Under the pieces are notes generated by a model. The model made no database searches. It was given only the letters and a program-made list of their open reading frames with translations, and was not told the origin of the DNA. A stretch of DNA of 64,000 nt. It comes from Lytechinus variegatus (Eukaryota; Echinodermata; Echinoidea; Temnopleuroida; Toxopneustidae). The translations under genes were made by a program, and so were the position numbers. Numbering within the stretch: the first letter of the stretch is position 1; each line of letters begins with the position of its first letter. The DNA is taken from the NCBI RefSeq assembly GCF_018143015.1, contig NC_054753.1, positions 30,975,292-31,039,291 on the forward strand. The letters are read 5' to 3'. Positions 3,621 to 15,699 of the stretch are shown here, in pieces.

Positions 3621-3791
3621 GGGGCCCGTTTCATAAAGCTGTTCATAAGTTAAGAGTGACTTTAAGAACGATTGGTGATCCTTTCTTGCGGTAAATAACG
3701 TTCACTATTATGTTGGTGATTATTTAGTGCGTAAGAAAGGATCAGTCGTTCTTAAAGTCGCTCTTAACTTACGAACAGCTTTATGAAACAC
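3621..3791. repeat. Palindromic MITE (TTTCATAAAGCTGTTC family)
   Basis: The left half (TTTCATAAAGCTGTTCATAA, then AGAGTGACTTTAAGAACGA) is inverted in the right half (TCGTTCTTAAAGTCGCTCTT, ending AACAGCTTTATGAAA). The whole unit is about 170 bp with a short AT-rich centre. Closely related copies occur at 38,707-38,862 and 63,729-63,912, with a divergent one at 55,402-55,567. It encodes nothing. Confidence 0.85.
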
Positions 3792-4016
3792 TTTCACTCG
3801 TCTTCCTCTAATTTTCCTCTTCTTGTTTTCCTTCCACTTTTCCCTTCTACTTTTCCCTTTTTCTTTTTCCATTTTTTTCTTTTTCCATTTTTTTCTTCTC
3901 CCATTTCTTTTTTTTTTTTGCTCCGCCAATTTTTGTTCAGGGAGCGAGGGCGGAGGCATGCGCACGTGCCCCCCGGCCCCCCCCCCCCCCCCCGCATCTT
4001 CATTTTTATTGGCACT
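3792..4016. other. Pyrimidine-rich and poly-C stretch
   Basis: A T/C-rich tract (3795-3920) is followed by a G/C-rich piece and a poly-C run. Long open frames here in several frames are produced by base composition. The LTR retrotransposon inserted immediately to the right. Confidence 0.7.
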
Positions 4017-4055
4017 ATAGTGTCAGGGCGTACTAATAACTTTAGCAGACGACAG

Positions 4056-4078
4056 CCAATCACGTGACTGCTCACGTG
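4056..4078 (+). promoter_or_regulatory. CCAAT box with two E-boxes in the LTR promoter
   Basis: CCAAT (4056-4060) is directly followed by CACGTG (4061-4066) and a second CACGTG (4073-4078). CACGTG is the palindromic E-box bound by USF/Myc-type bHLH factors. The same block occurs in the 3' LTR. Its role as the element's promoter is inferred from position and motif. Confidence 0.5.
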
Positions 4079-4230
4079 ACTTGTGGTCACATGACAAAAC
4101 CAGCGGGAGGCACGTCGTACAGCGGTCTGATAGGCTACGTACATGTACATATCGACACTGGACTTCACTTCACGAACGACGGCAGGCAAGGACGGACGTG
4201 TCACAAAAGGGCTCTTAAACATATCAGAGA

Positions 4231-4241
4231 ATAAGGTAGGA
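4231..4241 (+). promoter_or_regulatory. Candidate splice donor in the 5' LTR
   Basis: ATAAG|GTAGGA fits a splice donor with the cut after 4235. It could pair with the acceptor at 11,479-11,480 to make a subgenomic mRNA for the TatD gene. Other GT sites in the leader are possible donors, so this assignment is tentative. Confidence 0.3.
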
Positions 4242-4298
4242 TCTTCTCCCGGGTTATATATGTGTATGAATGTTAGTGTTTCGGCCCCTCCACAATAT

Positions 4299-5786: not shown

Positions 5787-8114
5787 ATGGCGAGCAACAT
5801 GTCAAGAATCAAAATCAACTTTTGTTCGCCTGAGGAATTGATGAGTTTGCCTGGAGTGGGTATGGCCACCGCCAACCGCATTCTACACGCGAGGGAGGCG
5901 GCCGACCTTACTCCAGAGACATTCTTGTCGATACCTCATATACCGAAGGCAGAACTGTTAGTTTACGCCTTTGATTATGAGCCAACAACAACGGCTCATA
6001 ATGTAGACCGCAGAGAAGTGCGCTCCGAAGGAGATGAGCCTGCTACGAGCGCTCCACTTATACCATCTAAGGAGCCCCCCGTAAGCCATGCGTTTGAGGC
6101 TTGGACACAGCACACCCGTGCACAAAGCACACAGGGTGCTGTAGGCCAGTCTTCTCAGACACAGGCTAGGGAGGCTCCCTCATTTTTCGCAGGGGGGAGG
6201 CCAGGTGGCGCTTCTACTCAGCAGCCCTCGGCCTCTCCAGAAGACAGGGTTAAGTCTCTATGGGGTGACCAAATGGGATTTTCAAGATGGAATGAGGGCC
6301 TGTTTCCACCACAGGGTCCCCCTCAAGTGGTATCCCCTTTGCCTGCCCCAGTGGGGCCACCATCGCACCAGAATTATTCCCCTCCATTTGTGCCAAGTTG
6401 GCAACCAAATCACCCCCCCCAGTTTGTTCCGCGGGCGCCAGCAGGCATGCAAGGTCAGGCCACCATGGCTCATGGTGGCCGACATGCAACATTTAGTCAA
6501 TCACCCCCACAGAGATGTCATAATACACAAGCTGGTTCACAATTCACACCAGCCCAATACGATGAGATATATGGCACAATGCTTCGCCTGATGCAATCCA
6601 TGCCATTTGGAATGGGTCAACCTGCTGCCGCTCACAGTGGATATTGCCCACCTTGGGCTGGCAGTAGATACGACCAACAATACTACCCCTACACCGCGGC
6701 CCCTCAGCCATCCCCTCAAGGACCTGGTGACCTGAGATATGGGGGGAGTAACCCCACCTATCAGGGCACTGGACCGCAAGGAGATGGACAAGGGGGCCCG
6801 GTAGCAAATCAGTACCGAAACCCAGCAATGCCATCGGTAAGTCCGGGATACAGGGAGCTGCCGACACATAGCCAGCCACCCCGCGTTACCCGGCTTACAT
6901 CGGCATCTGCTGACCAATATGACGATAGGAGGCCTCCATATCGACCAACAATACTGCCAAAGACAATTTCTTTTGATGGCAAGGGAAGTTGGGCGGCCTT
7001 CTATTCGAAGTTCGTACTCTACACAGAGAGACACGGCATGTCAGAGCCAGACAAGAAGTATCAGCTGTGTCTGGCGTTGGAGGCAGAGGCGAGTAAGTTC
7101 GCGGCTCTCATAAGGGAGAGCAATCCGACTATTTCCTACTCGGCCCTGGTTGCCAAATTGGAGAAGCGGTATTCTCTCCAGGATGAGCCAGAGGTCACTC
7201 GCATGCAGTTCCAATCGGCCTTCCAACGCTCTGATGAAGACCTATTAAAATGGGCGGATAGGCTTCTGACCCTTGCAGGCCAGGCCTTCGTAGGTCTACC
7301 TGACAAGTTTGTCCAGGAGCTTGTTGTGGCAAGGTTCTGCCAGGGCGCCCAAGACAAGGACGCAGGGCACCATGTCCTGACTTCGCGGCCTGGGACACTG
7401 GATGAGGCCATGACCAAGTTCAAGTGGTATCAGTTTACCCAGAAGACCATGCATTCGCATGGCCCTAGGCCCAAGAAAGAAGTGAGGCAGCTCTCTTTAG
7501 GAGACGACGATAATGACCTTAGGGTACATAAGTTGTCTCCTCAGAAGGCTGCCAGCAAGGGAAATTCTAGCCTTGAGGCTAGAATTAGTACTCTCGAGGC
7601 TCAGAACACGGTATGGGCCTCCAAGATGGATGCGATGGTCTCTGCGATCACGGATCTGTCACGAAGCACAAAGGAACTTCTATCGGTGTCAAGAGGCCAG
7701 TCAAGGTATCCCCCTGGCCGTGCCCCTGTTACACCGGATAGATCAAAATATACCTCTGGCCGGGAACCAGCAACACCAGACAGACAAAAATACACTTCCG
7801 GTCGGACTTCGGGTACACCGGACAGGCCGAGGTATAATGCAAACAAGACTCCGGATCGGTCAGTAGGTAGCAGGAGGTCATTTTCAGGCCCCCCGCCAAC
7901 CACACCTGACCGACAACGTGGCTTCACAGGTTGCTTCAATTGTGGGGAGGAAGGCCATTTCAGTAGGGCCTGCCCCAGAGGCAGATCACCTGCAAACAAC
8001 AGACAAGTGAGGGCTGTCACCTTCGAAGAAGGGGGAAATGGTCAGGGATCGGAGGAGATGGGGAGTCCCCGATCCGCTCACGGATCCCCGTCCCAACCAC
8101 CTCTATTCCACTAA
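5787..8114 (+). CDS. gag: Gag protein with N-terminal helix-hairpin-helix and zinc knuckle
   Basis: This is the structural protein of the LTR element, 775 residues. The ATG has A at -3 and G at +4. Residues 12-62 carry a helix-hairpin-helix (EELMSLPGVGMATANRIL) followed by a second, degenerate one; such folds bind DNA backbone non-specifically and are not a usual part of Gag. Residues about 85-390 are rich in Pro, Gln and Gly. Residues about 390-560 look like the capsid-type retrotransposon gag domain. Residues about 640-700 contain four to five short repeats around TPDR and KYTSGR. A CX2CX4HX4C zinc knuckle sits at C716, C719, H724 and C729 and should bind the genomic RNA. The frame is intact. 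It overlaps the pol frame, which is reached by a -1 shift near codon 751. Confidence 0.9.
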   Translation: MASNMSRIKINFCSPEELMSLPGVGMATANRILHAREAADLTPETFLSIPHIPKAELLVYAFDYEPTTTAHNVDRREVRSEGDEPATSAPLIPSKEPPVSHAFEAWTQHTRAQSTQGAVGQSSQTQAREAPSFFAGGRPGGASTQQPSASPEDRVKSLWGDQMGFSRWNEGLFPPQGPPQVVSPLPAPVGPPSHQNYSPPFVPSWQPNHPPQFVPRAPAGMQGQATMAHGGRHATFSQSPPQRCHNTQAGSQFTPAQYDEIYGTMLRLMQSMPFGMGQPAAAHSGYCPPWAGSRYDQQYYPYTAAPQPSPQGPGDLRYGGSNPTYQGTGPQGDGQGGPVANQYRNPAMPSVSPGYRELPTHSQPPRVTRLTSASADQYDDRRPPYRPTILPKTISFDGKGSWAAFYSKFVLYTERHGMSEPDKKYQLCLALEAEASKFAALIRESNPTISYSALVAKLEKRYSLQDEPEVTRMQFQSAFQRSDEDLLKWADRLLTLAGQAFVGLPDKFVQELVVARFCQGAQDKDAGHHVLTSRPGTLDEAMTKFKWYQFTQKTMHSHGPRPKKEVRQLSLGDDDNDLRVHKLSPQKAASKGNSSLEARISTLEAQNTVWASKMDAMVSAITDLSRSTKELLSVSRGQSRYPPGRAPVTPDRSKYTSGREPATPDRQKYTSGRTSGTPDRPRYNANKTPDRSVGSRRSFSGPPPTTPDRQRGFTGCFNCGEEGHFSRACPRGRSPANNRQVRAVTFEEGGNGQGSEEMGSPRSAHGSPSQPPLFH
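8033..8075 (+). promoter_or_regulatory. -1 ribosomal frameshift signal (gag to pol)
   Basis: GGGAAAT (8033-8039) is an X XXY YYZ slippery heptamer in the gag frame (codons GGA, AAT). Six bases later a perfect 7-bp stem can form, GGATCGG (8046-8052) with CCGATCC (8069-8075). GGATCC at 8081-8086 could compete for the stem or pair with it as an alternative or pseudoknot-like structure. The pol frame is open from well upstream of here to 8923. Spacing and frame fit programmed frameshifting; function is inferred. Confidence 0.7.
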
Positions 8115-8923
8115 AGGACAGTCAAAGTAAGGAAGACCATGGAAGCCCAAGGCCACTGGATGCAAATGCAAGTCCAAGGGGCCTGGAATCCTCTGAGGTG
8201 ACCGAGGTCCCTTGGAGGAATCCGCCATGGCCACCAGACATTCCTGGTGAGCGTAAAGATCAAGAGGTAGAAGTAGTCGTTTGTAGGATTGCTTCGACTT
8301 CAACATTAAGTGTTCAATTGACAGTTGGCAAAGAGTCCATTACCTCTGTTCTGGACACGGCGGCAGCTGTAACTATTATATCTGATAGGCTATTCCATCG
8401 CCTCCAGCCTCGGCCGCCCATCCTTAAGCGAAGAGTTCTTAAGGGGGCTGGCCGAGATATGACAATGGACGGTATTGTGATAGGGCCTATAGATATCCAG
8501 CTGGGTAATCAAATACTCAGCGAGGAAATCCACGTAGCTCCGATAGCAGATGAGATGCTATTTGGCGTTGATTTACTAAGGAAACACAATGCCAATATTA
8601 GCATTCCAAATGCTATGTTAACCTTGAATGGTGAAGATATACCAATCATACAACGTGACGGTTCGGGGAACATGGCAAGGGTGTGCATAAGTAAGGGCGT
8701 CTGTGTTCCTCCATGTTCGGTGCGGAGGGTTAAGTGCTCTGTTGCACTTAATCCTGGCCCCTTCTTGGTGGAACCACTGCCTCGCCTGCCCGCACCTGTA
8801 CTTATTCCCCGGAGCCTTCATGAAAGTGACAAAGAGACAGAGGTCTTCCTGATAAATCCCTCTGATATAACCTACAAGTTAAGAAGGGGCAGTCCTGGGA
8901 CGTTTCAAGGACTACAAGCTTAA
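8039..8923 (+). CDS. pol: Pol, first part: aspartic protease, cut off before reverse transcriptase
   Basis: This frame is -1 relative to gag and is probably translated as a Gag-Pol extension from the slippery site; the first codon after the shift is at 8039. The retropepsin domain has the catalytic motif LDTAAAVTIIS near 8353 (DTA; second Ala where Gly is usual in DTGA/DSGA) and the C-terminal motif MLFGVDLL near 8559. A linker of the kind that precedes reverse transcriptase follows up to about 8886. Then the frame enters sequence belonging to the far side of the RT active site and stops at 8921-8923. The protease looks intact. The polyprotein cannot continue into RNase H and integrase in this copy. 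Confidence 0.8.
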   Translation, partial: WSGIGGDGESPIRSRIPVPTTSIPLKDSQSKEDHGSPRPLDANASPRGLESSEVTEVPWRNPPWPPDIPGERKDQEVEVVVCRIASTSTLSVQLTVGKESITSVLDTAAAVTIISDRLFHRLQPRPPILKRRVLKGAGRDMTMDGIVIGPIDIQLGNQILSEEIHVAPIADEMLFGVDLLRKHNANISIPNAMLTLNGEDIPIIQRDGSGNMARVCISKGVCVPPCSVRRVKCSVALNPGPFLVEPLPRLPAPVLIPRSLHESDKETEVFLINPSDITYKLRRGSPGTFQGLQA

Positions 8924-11354
8924 ACTGAAACCCAAAAAGTGTGCCCTGTTCCAAGAAAGGGTGGAGTTCTTGGGTAGAGAAGTGGATGCTACCGGCTTGC
9001 ATCTACCAGAAGAAAACATTCAAAGGGTGGCGAACTGGCCGACTCCTACTTCCACGAGGGAGGTAGAACAATTCTTGGGTTTGGCCAATTACCACAGAGT
9101 GTTCATGAAAGATTATGCACGGGTGGCTGGGCCATTATATGAGCTCACAGGTAAAAATGCTTTTTGCTGGACAGAGGCCCACCAGGAAGCATTTGAACAA
9201 ATCAAGGCTCTCTTGACCTCGGCCCCTGTGCTCACACTTCCAAACGCATATGATCCGTTCATCCTAGATACGGATGCTTCTAGCACAGCAATTGGGGCGG
9301 AGTTATTACAAGTCCAGAATGGTGAGGAGAAGGTTATAGCCTATGGCAGTTTATCACTTTCTCCTCAACAAAAGAATTACTGCGTCACTCGCCGCGAGCT
9401 ACTCGCGCTAGTGTTATTCTGCAGACAGTATAGACATTACCTTCTAGGGAGGCCATTTACTGTCAGAACGGATCATGGTAGTCTGACATGGCTGCTCAAC
9501 TTCAAAACGCCAACAGGACAGCTGTCTCGTTGGCTTGAAGAGTTAGGACAGTATGATATGCAAGTGGAACACCGGCCCGGTAAACGCCACTGCAATGCTG
9601 ATTCCCTTTCGCGCATTCCGGATACGGAGCCAATGTGCGAGGGGTTTGAGCTGGGTGTGGGACTACAGGATTTGCCGTGTGGCGGGTGTTCATATTGTAC
9701 CAAAAGACACAAAGAATGGGCACACTTCGTCGACTGCGTAGACGATGTCGTGCCATTAAGCCAAAGCCAACGGGTCTCAAGAGTGGCGGTCGAAGGTCAT
9801 TTCCCCGTAACACACATGGAAATATCGTTTAATACAACCAACTCATTTGAGATCCGAAGTATTTCAGTTGGCCCAGCTGAGGGGGCAGAGGAACTGCCTT
9901 CTGACAATTTAGTCAAGAAGGAACAAGAAAAAGACCAAGTCCTCGAGCCCCTCCGTGAGTGGTTAACAGACAAGAAAGAACTGGATGAAGGGACTCTGTT
10001 TCTCCTCCCACCAGAGGGAAAGTTTTTGTGGATGAACAGGGAACTCTTTTTTCTCAAGGAAGGAGTTGTCAGGATGAAGAAGGATGTAGGTGATGTTGTG
10101 GTGGTTCCGGAATCACTAAGGCATGACATCATCCGGCTAAATCATGACCCTCCTTCAGCAGGGCATGCTGGGGTCCATCGTACTCGGGCTAAGTTAAAGT
10201 CCAAATACTATTGGTACGGCATGTCGGAAGATATTCGCATCTACATCGCCAGATGTGCCACCTGTAACCAAAACAAGAAGGCAACGCGTCCTGGCAGGCA
10301 TCCCATGAAGAGTTTTCATGCGAGCGCCCCCATGGAACGTGTCCATCTCGATTTCATGGGTCCGTTACCAAAAACAGCACAGGGTAATGAGCACATCCTG
10401 GTTATGGTAGACCAATTTACCAAGTGGGTGGAATGCGTACCCCTGCCCTCTCAAACGGCAGAAATGACCGCTCACGCCGCGGTGAACAGTTTTTTCTGCC
10501 GATTTGGGTATCCATTTCAAATCTTCACGGACCAGGGCAGAAATTTTGAGAGTACACTTTTCAAGGACATGTGTCGTGTCCTTGATATCCACAAGTCAAA
10601 AACAACCGCTTTCCGCCCCCAAGCAAATTCTCAAGTGGAGAGAGCAAATAGGACCTTGATGGATGCAGTGCGGTGCTATGTCTCAAAGTCTCAAAGAGAC
10701 TGGGATCGGCATCTCCAGCAGATCGCAGGTGCTATCCGCTCCTCCGTAAATCGTACAACTGGATTTACCCCCAACAAGCTAATGTTGGGACGCGAGGTAA
10801 ATCTACCCTCTGATCTCGTATTCTCAGTTCCTCAACCTACACAAGAGCAGACTAAGGAGGAATATGTGGCCGAGTTGACTTGTGCGATGCGTAATGCTCA
10901 CATTTCAGCTAGGGCCACAATAAAATCCGCTCAACGGAAGATGAAACGAGACTACGATATCAAACAACATACGAGGGAATTCAAAGTAAATGATCGGGTG
11001 TACATTAGAGACACGGCCTGTGCCAAAGGGAAATCGCGTAAGTTGAACCCCCCTTGGAAAGGGCCGGCGATCATCGTGGAGAAGAGATCACCATATCTGT
11101 ACAGAGTGGCCTTCAGGAGAACAATAGCCACCTACAACCATGTCCGCCTGAAAAAGTGCACGGATCAAGGTAAGGCAATTGTTGAGGCTCCTGGCAAAGG
11201 TAAACTGTATTGTTTTTGCCGGAGGCCCGATGACGGCTCTCTGATGATATGTTGTGATAAATGCAATGAATGGTACCATGGAATATGCGTGGGTATCACA
11301 GAAACAGAAGGAATGGAGAACCAAAAGTGGTTCTGCCCCCCTTGCAGTACATAG
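8883..11354 (+). CDS. pol: Pol, second part: RT C-terminal end, RNase H, integrase, PHD finger; RT core deleted
   Basis: Open from 8883 (after a stop at 8880-8882) to 11,354, in the gag frame rather than the frame of the protease. It has no natural start; the GTG at 8961 is internal. It begins with the post-active-site RT segment (KLKLKPKKC, then VEFLG). RNase H follows with DTDAS (about 9277), RREL, RTDHGSL and NADSLSR. The integrase has an HHCC zinc module (about 10,140-10,290) and a DDE core (LDFMG, FTDQGRN, then E in QVERANR, with 35 residues between the second D and E). The last ~47 residues form a C4HC3 PHD finger (CFC, MICCDKC, WYHGIC, WFCPPC). Fingers and palm of RT, including the YxDD box, are absent, and the reading frame changes at the junction near 8886-8900. 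Integrase would bind LTR ends and the PHD finger may guide it to chromatin. Confidence 0.85.
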   Translation, partial: EGAVLGRFKDYKLKLKPKKCALFQERVEFLGREVDATGLHLPEENIQRVANWPTPTSTREVEQFLGLANYHRVFMKDYARVAGPLYELTGKNAFCWTEAHQEAFEQIKALLTSAPVLTLPNAYDPFILDTDASSTAIGAELLQVQNGEEKVIAYGSLSLSPQQKNYCVTRRELLALVLFCRQYRHYLLGRPFTVRTDHGSLTWLLNFKTPTGQLSRWLEELGQYDMQVEHRPGKRHCNADSLSRIPDTEPMCEGFELGVGLQDLPCGGCSYCTKRHKEWAHFVDCVDDVVPLSQSQRVSRVAVEGHFPVTHMEISFNTTNSFEIRSISVGPAEGAEELPSDNLVKKEQEKDQVLEPLREWLTDKKELDEGTLFLLPPEGKFLWMNRELFFLKEGVVRMKKDVGDVVVVPESLRHDIIRLNHDPPSAGHAGVHRTRAKLKSKYYWYGMSEDIRIYIARCATCNQNKKATRPGRHPMKSFHASAPMERVHLDFMGPLPKTAQGNEHILVMVDQFTKWVECVPLPSQTAEMTAHAAVNSFFCRFGYPFQIFTDQGRNFESTLFKDMCRVLDIHKSKTTAFRPQANSQVERANRTLMDAVRCYVSKSQRDWDRHLQQIAGAIRSSVNRTTGFTPNKLMLGREVNLPSDLVFSVPQPTQEQTKEEYVAELTCAMRNAHISARATIKSAQRKMKRDYDIKQHTREFKVNDRVYIRDTACAKGKSRKLNPPWKGPAIIVEKRSPYLYRVAFRRTIATYNHVRLKKCTDQGKAIVEAPGKGKLYCFCRRPDDGSLMICCDKCNEWYHGICVGITETEGMENQKWFCPPCST

Positions 11355-11425: not shown

Positions 11426-11480
11426 TTTCTTCCTCCCCTCTTTCCCCCCATATGTGCATTATTCTTCTCTTCCCTTACAG
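11426..11480 (+). promoter_or_regulatory. Splice acceptor for the TatD gene
   Basis: A long pyrimidine tract (about 11,426-11,475) ends in CCCTTACAG, with the AG at 11,479-11,480 and the gene's ATG only 5 bases downstream. This is a strong 3' splice site. It suggests the downstream gene is expressed from a spliced subgenomic RNA in the way retroviral env genes are. Confidence 0.7.
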
Positions 11481-11485
11481 AGAAT

Positions 11486-12883
11486 ATGGACAGTGAAGCC
11501 TTACTGCCGCCGGGGGTGGAGGACGAAATAGAGGTAGAAATTGGTTCGGCCTCGGAGGTTGGTTCCCTAAGGGCTCCCTCTGAAGCCGAATCAACAGAAA
11601 TTAATGTAGAAGAGACAGGCGGATCGGCTCCAGTGGAGGCCCCCTGTGAGCCTGCCTCTGAGGCCGACCCGCCAAAATTGCAAATGGCGCCGCAGGCTTC
11701 GGGGACACTTTCCGAGCATCTGCCCCTCGCATCGCCAGGAGCAGATACTCAGAAGAGGAAGCTCTCCGAGGCCGAGCGCGCCCAAAAAAGATACAAACTA
11801 AATAAACGCAGGAAAGAACGTGGGAAGCGCGCCAAACAGGCAAAGAAACTCGCCCAAGGGCCGCTTTCCGGAACTGCTGCTGGACCCTCAACCAGTGGAG
11901 GCCTTACAGTTGGGGTTGGTCGTGGCCGTGGGCAGATGCCCACTTGGCTTAGACCACCCCAGCCTGTGGAGAGTTCCCCCACTGGGAGAGGGAGGGGAAT
12001 AACCCCACAAATGCTGGAACATGTTTTGGGGGAACGCCCTCGGCCACCACTGCAAGCCTTTGATTCCCATTATCATCCGGACCGTATTGACCTCAAACGA
12101 GCAAAAACACAACTTCAGGGAGAGCCCTGTCACCCAGTCAAGGTAGTCGGGGGAATATGGAATTTTTGCGACCCCGTGAGATATTCCGCCCCCGGCTTCC
12201 TCGACAGGGTATTCAGGGAACTTCCTGAAGGCTACGCAGTGGCTGTGGGCATTCATCCAAAACAGGCCTCTGGCCTGTCGCGCTATCATTTCGAGGCCCT
12301 GCGATTGGCTCTGGCTGACCCGCGAGTCAGGGGCATTTCGGAGGTGGGCCTGGATTGGAGCACTGACGACTCCGAGTGGGGGGCACAGGAGCAGCTCTTT
12401 GAGCGGCTCCTGGGGCTCTCCACCGGAAGAGTCCTCGTCCTCCATCTCCGGGGGGCCAATGGCTCGCGGGCCGGAAATGAGCCAATCCCGCGCTCAATCC
12501 ACAAGTTGGCACGCGACGCCATCCGTCGACGATGCCCGGCCACACAGAGAATCCATCTACACTGTTTCATGGGCTCGCCGGACATCGTCGATGAATGGAC
12601 GTCGACGTTTACATATGCTTATTTCGGGGTAACAGGCAGCGCATCTTACTACTGTGGAGCCGGTGCCAGTCTCAAGAAGCTTGGCATCCGCTCCATCCCA
12701 CAAAACCGTCTCCTCCTCGAGACAGACGCCCCCTACTTGCCCGTCCGCCCTCGCCAGGGTTGGCAAACGGAATCATTTATAGGCGATGTCGGGCAAGTGG
12801 TGGCGTCCATTCGAGGAGTTTCCCTCAGTCAAGTACTCGAGGAGACAACAATCAACGCCAGAGAGTTGTATTGCCTTAAATAA
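11486..12883 (+). CDS. TatD-family metal-dependent nuclease encoded by the retrotransposon
   Basis: 465 residues from the ATG at 11,486 (A at -3, G at +4; the upstream in-frame codons lie in the presumed intron). Residues 1-85 are acidic, about 90-125 strongly basic and probably a nuclear localisation signal, and 130-180 contain GRGRG-type segments. From about residue 190 the protein is a complete TatD-like TIM-barrel hydrolase: FDSHYHPDR (H195, H197), GIHPK, ISEVGLDW (E286), VLHLRG, HLHCFMGS and LLETDAPYL (D414). These are the metal ligands of TatD/TATDN nucleases, so activity is likely; the nearest human type by motif is probably TATDN2. Known TatD enzymes cut DNA, and TATDN2 has been linked to RNA. 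The gene lies after integrase, inside the LTRs, in the position of an env gene. Trimming of cDNA ends or removal of RNA or abortive cDNA are possible roles but only guesses. Confidence 0.88.
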   Translation: MDSEALLPPGVEDEIEVEIGSASEVGSLRAPSEAESTEINVEETGGSAPVEAPCEPASEADPPKLQMAPQASGTLSEHLPLASPGADTQKRKLSEAERAQKRYKLNKRRKERGKRAKQAKKLAQGPLSGTAAGPSTSGGLTVGVGRGRGQMPTWLRPPQPVESSPTGRGRGITPQMLEHVLGERPRPPLQAFDSHYHPDRIDLKRAKTQLQGEPCHPVKVVGGIWNFCDPVRYSAPGFLDRVFRELPEGYAVAVGIHPKQASGLSRYHFEALRLALADPRVRGISEVGLDWSTDDSEWGAQEQLFERLLGLSTGRVLVLHLRGANGSRAGNEPIPRSIHKLARDAIRRRCPATQRIHLHCFMGSPDIVDEWTSTFTYAYFGVTGSASYYCGAGASLKKLGIRSIPQNRLLLETDAPYLPVRPRQGWQTESFIGDVGQVVASIRGVSLSQVLEETTINARELYCLK

Positions 12884-13637: not shown

Positions 13638-13657
13638 TAGGGTGGGGGGAAGTATAG
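13638..13657 (+). other. Polypurine tract before the 3' LTR
   Basis: TAGGGTGGGGGGAAG is followed by TATAG and then the TGTC start of the 3' LTR. The G-rich purine run is in the position of the plus-strand primer. Confidence 0.7.
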
Positions 13658-13938
13658 TGTCAGGGCGTACTAATAACTTTAGCAGACGACAGCCAATCAC
13701 GTGACTGCTCACGTGACTTGTGGTCACATGACAAAACCAGCGGGAGGCACGTCGTACAGCGGTCTGATAGGCTACGTACTACGTACATGTACATATCGAC
13801 ACTGGACTTCACTTCACGACCGACGGCAGGCAAGGACGGACGTGTCACAAAAGGGCTCTTAAACATATCAGAGAATAAGGTAGGATCTTCTCCCGGGTTA
13901 TATATGTGTATGAATGTTAGTGTTTCGGCCCCTCCACA
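13658..13938 (+). repeat. 3' LTR (281 bp)
   Basis: A near-exact copy of the 5' LTR with one substitution and a 7-bp tandem duplication (TACGTAC repeated in GGCTACGTACTACGTACATG). It is followed by ATAG, the right copy of the target duplication. Confidence 0.95.
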
Positions 13939-14130
13939 ATAGCAGTCGACCAGGAATCAAGAAGTGCTGTGTGTTGTCGAGACGCATGAAGACGTGTAGG
14001 CCTATAGAGTCTAACAGTTAAAAAAAGTTCTGCTTATTTTGGTAAGTAAAGCTTTTTGTTCTTTTGCTTCACAATTGTAGAGTATGATAATTAAAAATAA
14101 AGGAAAATGTGAAGGAATAGGCCTAGAGGG

Positions 14131-15640
14131 GGACGGGACAACTCGGACCACGGGACATCTCGGACCGCGGGCCGAGTTGTCCCACCCAGTACGAGATTTT
14201 TTTTCCACAAGTTTGCGTCTATTTTTCCGTCATTTCGAAATTTCTTGTAAAGATTTTTTAGAGATATGGTCTGATGGTAATGTTCTTCACATTTTATTAC
14301 TTTTTTTTTCGCTGAAATAAAAAAAAAGTGTAATTTTAGGCGTTTTTCGACAGCTCGCGATTCCCATAGGCGAGCGTGTATTAACTGTGTCGGTGCTCGG
14401 CTCGGCCCCGCTCAATAACTGACTTGATTTTGTGATCATTTCTCCTCAAAGTACCACTTTTATCGCAGAAGATGGACTTTGTTGTATTCCATTACCTCCA
14501 TTTTCTCATCACAAGGATAAAATTTGGTGTATTTGCACGATTTTGATCAAGTTTTTCACCTTTTTCTCTCTGGTCGCAAGAAGCGAACAACCGATGAACG
14601 GTCCGCTGCTCTTCATCGTAATTCTCCGTAGCTCGGCCGCCTAAACTGGCGGGGTGGGATTTAGCCCGAATCCACAATGGAAGTGGGCGTGCAGTCAAAG
14701 AGCTGAGCTTGACTGAGTGAGAGAGAGAGTGAATTAGAGTTTGAAGCTTGGCAGTGTCGTATAGGCTCTGCCTTTTTTTTGTAAATATATATTTTTCAAT
14801 TTTTTCTATATTGATTTTCCCTGGTTTCGAGCTCTAAGATTGTAATGATATAATTATGCTTCAATTTCTTTGACTGAGTGTGACTGTGGTGTGGATGTTT
14901 GAGTTGCTCAAAAATAAGTTACGTGGCCGGGTGGGGGCTCGGGGCGATTTCACTCTTGCCCCCGAAATGCGAAAAAAATATATTCGGGATTTCGGGGTGT
15001 AGCTGTGTGGGCATGCCGGGCTGAGGCTAGCCATCAATAATTTTTTTTTTTTTGGAGAGGGGGGGCTTAATTTTTCACTTTAAATTGATCATTTTTAGGC
15101 CTTTTTTTCCATTTTATTTTTAATATTGAATTTCCGTGGTGTAGAGTTGAGTTTTAAGTTGCAATAATCAATATGCTTTAATTTCTTTGACTTTGAATGT
15201 GACTGTGGTGTGGATGTTTGAGTCGAACAAAAAATACTTTTACGTGGGTGGGGGCTCGGGGCGATTTCACTCCTGCCCCCTAAATGCGAAAAATATACGG
15301 GATGTAGCTGTGTGGGCATGCCGGGCTGAGGGTAGCCCTCAATAAAAAAATGTTGGGGTTTTTTTTTTTGGGGGGGGCTTAATTTTTCACTTTAAATTTA
15401 TTATTTTTAGGCCTATTTTTTGTACATTTTATTTTTCATATTGAGTTTCCCTGGTGTAGAGAGTTGAGTTTTAAGTTGCAATAATTAATATGCTTCAGTT
15501 TCTTTGATTTTGAGTGTGACTGTGGTGTGGATGTTTGAGCCGAACAAAAAATATGTGGATGGGGGCTCCGAGCATTTTCACTCCTGCCCCCGAAATGTGA
15601 AAATGTTCTAGGTGTATCTGTGTGGGCATGCCAATTTCAT
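14131..15640 (+). repeat. Left inverted arm with three ~310-bp subrepeats
   Basis: The outer ~750 bp match the right arm in inverse orientation almost without gaps, including an identical 70-codon open frame (14,432-14,644 here, 19,525-19,737 there on the minus strand). Then come three related units containing TGTGTGGGCATGCC (ending near 15,040, 15,345 and 15,640), GGTGTGGATGTTTGAG and GGGGCTCGGGGCGATTTCA. The shared open frame is explained by DNA identity of the arms, not by protein selection. Confidence 0.85.
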
Positions 15641-15699
15641 TTTTAATTTTTATATTGAGTTTCCTTTGTGTAGAGAGCAGAGTTTTGGATATAGGGTAA

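What the first reader, a model, noticed from the sequence alone, without database searches (positions are those of the whole stretch)
11486..12883. A TatD-family nuclease as the third gene of a gypsy-type retrotransposon
A complete TatD-like hydrolase, with all metal-binding motifs in order (H195-x-H197, GIHP, E286, LHLR, HLHCFMGS, ETDAP with D414), is encoded inside the LTRs after integrase, where an env gene would be expected. It has an acidic/basic N-terminal extension that looks nuclear-targeting. I know of no standard gypsy gene set that includes such an enzyme, though a described family may exist. All catalytic residues are kept in a young element, so selection probably maintains it. A host TATDN2-like gene captured by the element is the simplest origin.
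Basis: partly seen in the sequence, partly recalled or inferred. Interest (0 to 1): 0.88.

Follow-up and report, generated by a model that had tools for sequence, protein, structure and literature searches.

The report
Retrotransposons carrying a TatD nuclease gene
A group of related jumping genes in what is probably a sea urchin genome carries, where retroviruses keep their envelope gene, a DNA/RNA-cutting enzyme that looks borrowed long ago from an animal gene like TATDN2 and still under selection.

Summary
The finding holds. The TatD ORF (11486-12883, PF01026 E=3e-30) lies after RNaseH-integrase-PHD and inside LTRs (4016-4297, 13653-13941) that differ by one substitution. It is not a one-off. 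In this genome (869.6 Mb; probably Lytechinus variegatus, inferred) 14 of 22 listed integrase loci at least 50% identical to the window's have TatD just downstream, against 0 of 62 more distant ones. They form five families (A-E); LTR pairs were found in A and B. TatD and integrase trees share their one supported split. The TatD domain is under constraint (dN/dS 0.14-0.25 where changes suffice, like integrase). A strong predicted splice acceptor precedes the ORF, so expression is probably env-like. Relatives in bivalves, Lingula and L. pictus, mostly with a zinc finger, join the same clade, apart from host TATDN2 but nearer to it than to bacterial-type TatD. Caveats: the window copy has lost 800 bp of RT; a sister family with PHD integrase shows no TatD; several copies are frameshifted or lack a catalytic residue; most TatD loci have no listed integrase. 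Most likely an ancient TATDN2-like nuclease acting in the nucleus on element DNA or RNA:DNA; substrate inferred. New variant of a known kind.

The parts
4016..4297 (+). 5' LTR (TATAGTGTC...CCACAATA), 282 nt
   Evidence: direct repeat with 13653-13941, 1 mismatch plus 7 gap columns
5787..8114 (+). gag ORF, 775 aa, with N-terminal helix-hairpin-helix and C-terminal zinc knuckle
   Evidence: PF00633 1.3e-7, PF00098 3.8e-6
8198..8923 (+). protease and protease-RT spacer ORF
   Evidence: PF13975 7.1e-6, just under its curated cut-off
8885..8890 (+). junction of an 800-bp loss in the RT region of this copy; the two flanking alignments overlap by 6 nt
   Evidence: comparison with the C1:64.0 Mb and C3:71.0 Mb copies
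8961..11354 (+). RT C-terminal end, RNase H, integrase (H2C2, rve) and C-terminal PHD finger ORF
11461..11480 (+). predicted 3' splice acceptor (pyrimidine tract + ACAG) 5 nt before the TatD ATG
   Evidence: score in the top 0.09% of 6995 AG sites of the window; none of 107 control ORFs has a site of score 5.5 or more within 22 nt
11486..12883 (+). TatD ORF, 465 aa: acidic 1-85, basic predicted helix 86-123, TatD domain about 187-465
13639..13652 (+). polypurine-rich tract abutting the 3' LTR
   Evidence: read in the sequence
13653..13941 (+). 3' LTR, 289 nt

Best explanation
The TatD ORF is an established third gene of one clade of Ty3/gypsy-type retrotransposons, not a passenger. SHOWN: it follows integrase in five families in this genome (LTR pairs around it were found in three A and three B copies), its tree matches the integrase tree at the one supported split, and its domain is under purifying selection. 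WELL SUPPORTED: it derives from one ancient TATDN2-like source and was joined to a zinc-finger/helical N-terminus that family A later lost or replaced; it is made, like env, from a spliced subgenomic RNA using the acceptor in front of its ATG. INFERRED: the protein enters the nucleus through its basic N-terminus or finger and works as a metal-dependent 3' exonuclease, AP endonuclease or RNA-of-hybrid nuclease on the element's own nucleic acids (cDNA ends, residual RNA:DNA hybrid, damaged or gapped integration intermediates), or on R-loops at the target, raising the yield of integrated copies.
For: 14 of 22 A-like integrase loci have TatD downstream versus 0 of 62 others, Fisher p 1e-10. gag-pol-TatD-LTR order in family A (C1, C3) and family B (C9:12.2 and C11:33.9 with LTRs identical over 360 and 361 nt; C1:53.5); families C, D, E with integrase upstream. 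TatD domain dN/dS: window vs C9:0.72 0.25 (p 0.007), vs C8 copies 0.15 and 0.14 (p<1e-13), E copies 0.20 (p 0.0004); N-terminal part 0.40-0.73 in these same pairs. DE|ABC is the supported split in both integrase and TatD trees; 31 element-type rows form one clade, 100/100. Acceptors in the integrase-TatD interval of A-E, 0-8 nt before an ATG in A, B, D, E. A CDP-type motif before GxHP is in 58 of 63 element-type rows (loose pattern) and in hyena TATDN2, and in none of the seven bacterial-type rows of the tree. [quoted passage not shown] that paper was not seen).
Against: Family I, with PHD integrase of the same clade, shows no TatD: 5 of the 22 loci, grouped by score; 2 of the 5 inspected for about 3.5 kb downstream. 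No LTR pair was found for C9:0.72, the C8 copies or the C copy; none was looked for in D and E. Copies C (A at site 414), D (L at site 257 and a frame change) and E (frames broken) are not intact. In the C8 copies TatD-domain dS (0.33) is three times integrase dS (0.10), so parts of one element differ in history. The C3 copy's N-terminal part gives dN/dS 1.01 on 4 changes, and the truncated C9:19.3 B copy 1.82 on 7 changes. The host TATDN2-type gene has CYP, and P0068 CDE, in place of CDP. No RNA data; no biochemical data for any element TatD.
Confidence: 0.55

Rival explanations
1. One-off transduction or insertion of a host TatD gene into this element.
For: Only two loci have a fully identical TatD.
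Against: Six other A copies or remnants, plus families B-E, have the gene next to integrase; the host TATDN2-type gene is matched in four pieces and about 28% identical to the window's.
Confidence: 0.02
2. The nuclease acts outward, not on element nucleic acid: it destroys competing or foreign DNA/RNA or blunts a host defence.
For: The bacterial anti-phage nuclease QatD is a distant TatD relative (NCBIfam hit 1.6e-9, far below its cut-off); the gene is accessory, since family I shows none.
Against: Nothing here points to a particular host target; a basic, probably nuclear N-terminus is unexpected for a cytosolic sensor blocker (inference).
Confidence: 0.2
3. TatD serves as a DNA- or RNA-binding or structural protein and its catalysis is dispensable.
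For: The C copy has A at site 414, and an H-type ORF of 1142 aa has R at 320 and N at 414 yet is open.
Against: In 63 element-type rows (the window's own included) H257, H320, H359 and D414 are kept in 63, E286 in 62, H195 in 59 and H197 in 57, the remaining H195/H197 cells being alignment gaps.
Confidence: 0.1
4. Echinoderm and bivalve elements captured TatD separately.
For: Long branches; contexts of bivalve genes were not seen, apart from one gene model (P0028).
Against: One clade at 100/100 with a shared zinc-finger and NSPAxLxHW module (25 of 42 long hits have both), and P0028 joins gypsy protease-RT spacer (E=1e-8) to TatD.
Confidence: 0.1

Closest known systems
TATDN2 (animal TatD-domain protein; here host gene C3:20.29 Mb and hyena P0070)
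   Same: TatD domain and motif residues; CDP-type motif before GxHP in hyena TATDN2 (CYP in the host gene)
   Different: about 25-31% identical; host gene matched in four separate pieces; element TatDs form their own long-branched clade
Ty3/gypsy (Metaviridae) retrotransposons
   Same: LTRs, gag, protease, RNase H-integrase order, RT in relatives, polypurine tract
   Different: third ORF is a nuclease instead of env or nothing; integrase ends in a PHD finger
Retroviral and errantiviral env (recalled)
   Same: third position and probable expression by splicing to an acceptor before the ATG
   Different: an enzyme, not a membrane fusion protein; only PF01026 is found in it
Bacterial TatD/YcfH and QatD (Qat anti-phage system)
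   Same: fold and metal-site motifs
   Different: well below NCBIfam cut-offs; the seven bacterial-type rows of the tree lack the CDP-type motif

Membership tests
TatD hydrolase family (PF01026) | profile score over the curated cut-off | tested here: met
   105.8 bits vs cut-off 27
TatD hydrolase family (PF01026) | metal-site residues HxH, E, H, H, D (roles recalled) | tested here: met
   H195 H197 E286 H320 H359 D414
TatD hydrolase family (PF01026) | TatD alpha/beta barrel fold | tested here: met
   predicted model; best PDB match 6l25, E 3.8e-16, TM 0.79 by target
TatD hydrolase family (PF01026) | nuclease activity | not testable with these tools
   needs recombinant protein
TATDN2 orthologue | groups with host TATDN2 genes | tested here: not met
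   host C3:20.29 Mb pairs with hyena TATDN2 (96/90); element TatDs are a separate clade
TATDN2-derived | closer to TATDN2 than to TATDN1, TATDN3 or bacterial TatD | tested here: inconclusive
   separated with TATDN2 from bacterial-type rows 100/99; CDP motif shared with hyena TATDN2, CYP in the host gene; TATDN1/3 not in the tree
Ty3/gypsy LTR retrotransposon | PR-RT-RNaseH-INT order between LTRs | tested here: met
   LTRs and pol order; RVT_1 in the family E pol; the window copy has lost part of RT
Ty3/gypsy LTR retrotransposon | target-site duplication | tested here: inconclusive
   GCAC/GCAC in C3:71.0, GCAC/GCAG in the window, none seen in C1:64.0; not worked out for B
Env-bearing errantivirus | membrane fusion protein as third gene | tested here: not met
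   third gene hits PF01026 only

The most novel reading that the evidence does not exclude
An animal-wide retroelement lineage (echinoderms, bivalves, brachiopods) replaced or forwent env with a zinc-finger TatD nuclease of TATDN2 descent. Together with an integrase PHD finger that reads H3K4-methylated promoters, the nuclease opens R-loop-rich targets or finishes integration; and many invertebrate genes annotated 'TATDN2' are really genes of this lineage, some re-domesticated by the host.
Probability: 0.2. Interest if true: 0.9.

Novelty: new variant of a known kind. Interest (0 to 1): 0.75.

Why it matters
Accessory enzymes conserved through a retrotransposon clade are uncommon (recalled); a nuclease outside RNase H and integrase would point to an unrecognised step in the element life cycle that can be tested with one purified protein. 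It would also mean that multi-copy 'TATDN2' annotations in invertebrate genomes need re-reading as transposon genes.

Tried and rejected
One-off capture: rejected. TatD as a neighbouring host gene: rejected, since it lies between integrase and the 3' LTR in the six A and B copies with LTR pairs. First codon-based dN/dS by tblastn gave 0.6 for the C3 copy because of frame changes; replaced by a column-wise DNA comparison. A motif pattern of mine was one position short (0 hits) and was corrected. Scan of viral contigs with the single protein: 1 pattern match, no relative; with the alignment, 7 of 28 matches were relatives at 24-31% identity (L001-L007), not studied further. Bacterial genome contigs: 17 pattern matches, no relative. 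The F copies were checked for LTRs and pol in the pieces held: no LTR pair found; an integrase-like stretch (32%) lies downstream of one of the two. A viral-structure search with a bivalve TatD model found one giant-virus protein at E 4e-12 and nothing else under 0.001. The joint probability printed for five families is not used, because the ATGs of B and D were chosen after seeing the acceptor and C has no assigned ATG. Print search: only searches were answered (TatD+retrotransposon+LTR: 4 papers; TATDN2+Gypsy: 0; retrotransposon+TATDN2: 8). For most of the listed papers I saw title and start of abstract only; passages were read in three of them and in PMC12754012. None that I saw describes a retrotransposon-encoded TatD. 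Nine further paper searches failed in the database, so absence from print is weakly tested.

Full report
The observation. The ORF at 11486-12883 encodes 465 aa with a TatD domain (PF01026, 3.3e-30, residues 192-462), all metal-site motif residues and a confident TatD fold. It follows an ORF with RNase H, integrase and a PHD finger (8961-11354) and precedes a polypurine-rich tract and the 3' LTR. The LTRs, 4016-4297 and 13653-13941, show 281 matches, 1 mismatch and 7 gap columns, so the insertion is young. The copy is not complete: relative to the C1:64.0 Mb copy 800 bp of the RT region are absent at about 8885-8890.

Host genome. The window is C14:30975292-31039291 of an 869.6-Mb genome in 33 contigs. 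A Lytechinus pictus protein of 289 aa is 84% identical to the TatD. I infer a sea urchin, probably Lytechinus variegatus; the assembly-size match is recalled, not tested.

Copies in the same genome. A six-frame search with the TatD gives 61 matches, which I merged into 40 loci. A search with the integrase-PHD region scored 86 of 1478 candidates and lists 88 matches; I used 84 loci after leaving out 4 extra pieces of loci already counted. Of 22 loci with at least 50% identity, 14 have TatD on the same strand: 13 within 6 kb downstream and one (C3:23.49) adjoining with a short overlap. Of 62 below 50%, none does (Fisher p 1e-10). The 14 are seven family-A loci (window, C1:64.0, C9:0.72, C3:71.0, two on C8, the C3:23.49 remnant at 80% identity), three B, one C, one D, two E. 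The 8 without are five at 53% identity that I take as one family I by score (two were compared and are near-identical) and three others. I looked about 3.5 kb downstream in 3 of these 8 and found no TatD, and the PF01026 search (49 matches, 64 of 64 candidates scored) lists none within 6 kb of the other five.

Families. TatD domains of A-E are 35-54% identical to each other and their RNaseH-integrase regions 55-69%. LTR pairs were found in three A copies (window, C1:64.0, C3:71.0) and three B copies; B copies on C9:12.2 and C11:33.9 have LTRs identical over 360 and 361 nt, while C1:53.5 has 4 mismatches and 8 gap columns. No LTR pair was found for C9:0.72, the two C8 copies or the C copy within the pieces held, and none was looked for in D and E. 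In both the integrase and the TatD tree of five rows the supported split is DE|ABC (100/99 and 97/94), and B and C are the closest pair by identity in both; the TatD tree carries a long-branch warning for D with E. With outgroups, the A-E integrases and family I fall on one side of a 100/100 branch, family I being unresolved inside, so TatD was either lost in I or gained just after I split off.

Selection. Compared column-wise, the TatD domain gives dN/dS 0.25 (window vs C9:0.72; 9 silent, 7 amino-acid changes; p 0.007), 0.15 and 0.14 (window vs the two decayed C8 copies), 0.20 (E copies) and 0.12 (F copies). Integrase gives 0.24, 0.25 and 0.30 in the same A comparisons, and the TatD N-terminal part 0.51-0.73 there and 0.40 in E. 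Other pairs have too few changes: none with C1:64.0; 1 silent and 0 amino-acid with C3:71.0; 0 changes between B copies C9:12.2 and C11:33.9 and 1 silent change between C9:12.2 and C1:53.5. Against: the C3 copy's N-terminal part gives 1.01 on 4 changes, and the truncated C9:19.3 B copy 1.82 on 7 changes. Not every copy is intact: C has A at site 414, D has L at site 257 and its acceptor-side ATG is out of frame with the domain (by arithmetic on the outputs), and the E ORFs are broken. ORFs running from the acceptor-side ATG through the domain with all motif residues were seen in A (window, C1:64.0) and B (C9:12.2, C11:33.9).

Expression. A strong 3' splice acceptor lies between integrase and TatD in all five families (for A, B, D, E; for C). 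The AG ends 5, 1, 0 and 8 nt before an ATG in A, B, D and E; these sites rank in the top 0.09%, 1.03%, 0.06% and 0.64% of the 6995 AG sites of the window. In C it lies 23 nt before an ATG whose frame I did not assign. In B the ATG is the second of the ORF. None of 107 control ORFs has a site of score 5.5 or more within 22 nt, and 1.0% of all 2804 ATGs in the window do. The scoring matrix is a generic one typed from general knowledge. Possible donors in the leader were only listed, and are weak. This is the layout of a retroviral env message (recalled), but no RNA was examined.

Origin and spread. The protein search scored the 7996 candidates sharing most words and returned 92, including Saccostrea, Magallana, Pinctada, Mizuhopecten, Lingula and L. 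pictus. In a tree of 44 rows (36 of the 92, and 8 of 13 genome rows), 31 element-type rows form one clade at 100/100. Of 42 hits P0001-P0064 of at least 380 aa, 28 have a C2H2-like finger, 34 an NSPAxLxHW-like motif and 25 both; five, the window protein among them, have neither. The Magallana model P0028 begins with gypsy protease-RT spacer (E 1e-8 to the window ORF; 6e-7 to family E pol) and runs into TatD, a sign that the bivalve gene too sits in such an element; the DNA around the bivalve genes could not be fetched. The host gene at C3:20.29 Mb, matched in four pieces, pairs with hyena TATDN2 at 96/90; a branch at 100/99 separates TATDN2 plus element TatDs from six bacterial-type rows (of these only P0089 is named as bacterial). 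A CDP-type motif before GxHP is in hyena TATDN2, P0066, P0073 and P0076, in 58 of 63 element-type rows by a loose pattern, and in none of the seven bacterial-type rows of the tree; but the host gene has CYP there and P0068 CDE. P0068 combines a TATDN2-like domain with the finger. TATDN1 and TATDN3 were not included, so TATDN2 descent is favoured, not proven.

Mechanism. The protein is best read as a nuclear nuclease: an acidic start, a basic predicted helix (17 K/R of 40) or a finger, then an active-looking TatD domain. [quoted passage not shown] TatD enzymes are also known as 3' exonucleases and AP endonucleases (recalled, except that NCBIfam names one model 3'-5' ssDNA/RNA exonuclease TatD). 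I favour action on element cDNA, residual hybrid or integration intermediates. Action at target R-loops, with the PHD finger as reader of methylated H3K4 (recalled as a property of such fingers), is the bolder variant; family B has no recognisable PHD, so the two need not work together.

Verdict. Novelty in print was tested only by three answered searches, so a description elsewhere cannot be excluded.

Noticed in passing
window 5787-5990: Gag starts with a helix-hairpin-helix motif (PF00633), also matched at the gag N-terminus of families B (46%) and C (37.5%); unusual for a gag protein as far as I recall.
   Followed up: partly
window 11211-11345: Integrase ends in a PHD finger, also in families D, E and I and truncated in C; not recognisable in B.
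   Followed up: partly
L036 (C4:64.9 Mb) and C4:63.57 Mb: Two open frames of 1142 and 1145 aa; the one read (C4:64.9) has finger and TatD domain, R and N at two metal-site positions and no integrase in the upstream pieces held: possible domesticated, catalytically altered host genes.
   Followed up: partly
L039/L040 (C13:21.7 Mb, C9:7.85 Mb): F-type TatD copies, close to L. pictus P0004 in the tree, share homology from about 0.2 kb upstream of the ORF to about 1 kb downstream, with no LTR pair found; an integrase of 57% identity lies 16 kb upstream of the C9 copy.
   Followed up: partly
L022-L025 (C8 copies): TatD-domain dS to the window is 0.33 while integrase dS is 0.10 in the same copies: suggests recombination between element lineages.
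   Followed up: no
window 3628-3789: Inverted repeat with 47-nt arms, 94% complementary, 68 nt apart, beside the 5' LTR: looks like a small palindromic MITE.
   Followed up: no
window 14787-15675: Tandem repeat of about 315 bp, up to four copies.
   Followed up: no
PMC6962438: The giant squid Hox cluster figure legend lists 'TATDN2' next to transposon-type genes such as POGK and ZMYM1 (passage); such annotations may be element genes.
   Followed up: no
C9:17.3, C10:5.3, C3:57.9, C1:30.1, C6:1.27 Mb: Sister family I with PHD integrase; the two copies compared are near-identical (tree distance 0.0019) and have no TatD in about 3.5 kb downstream.
   Followed up: partly
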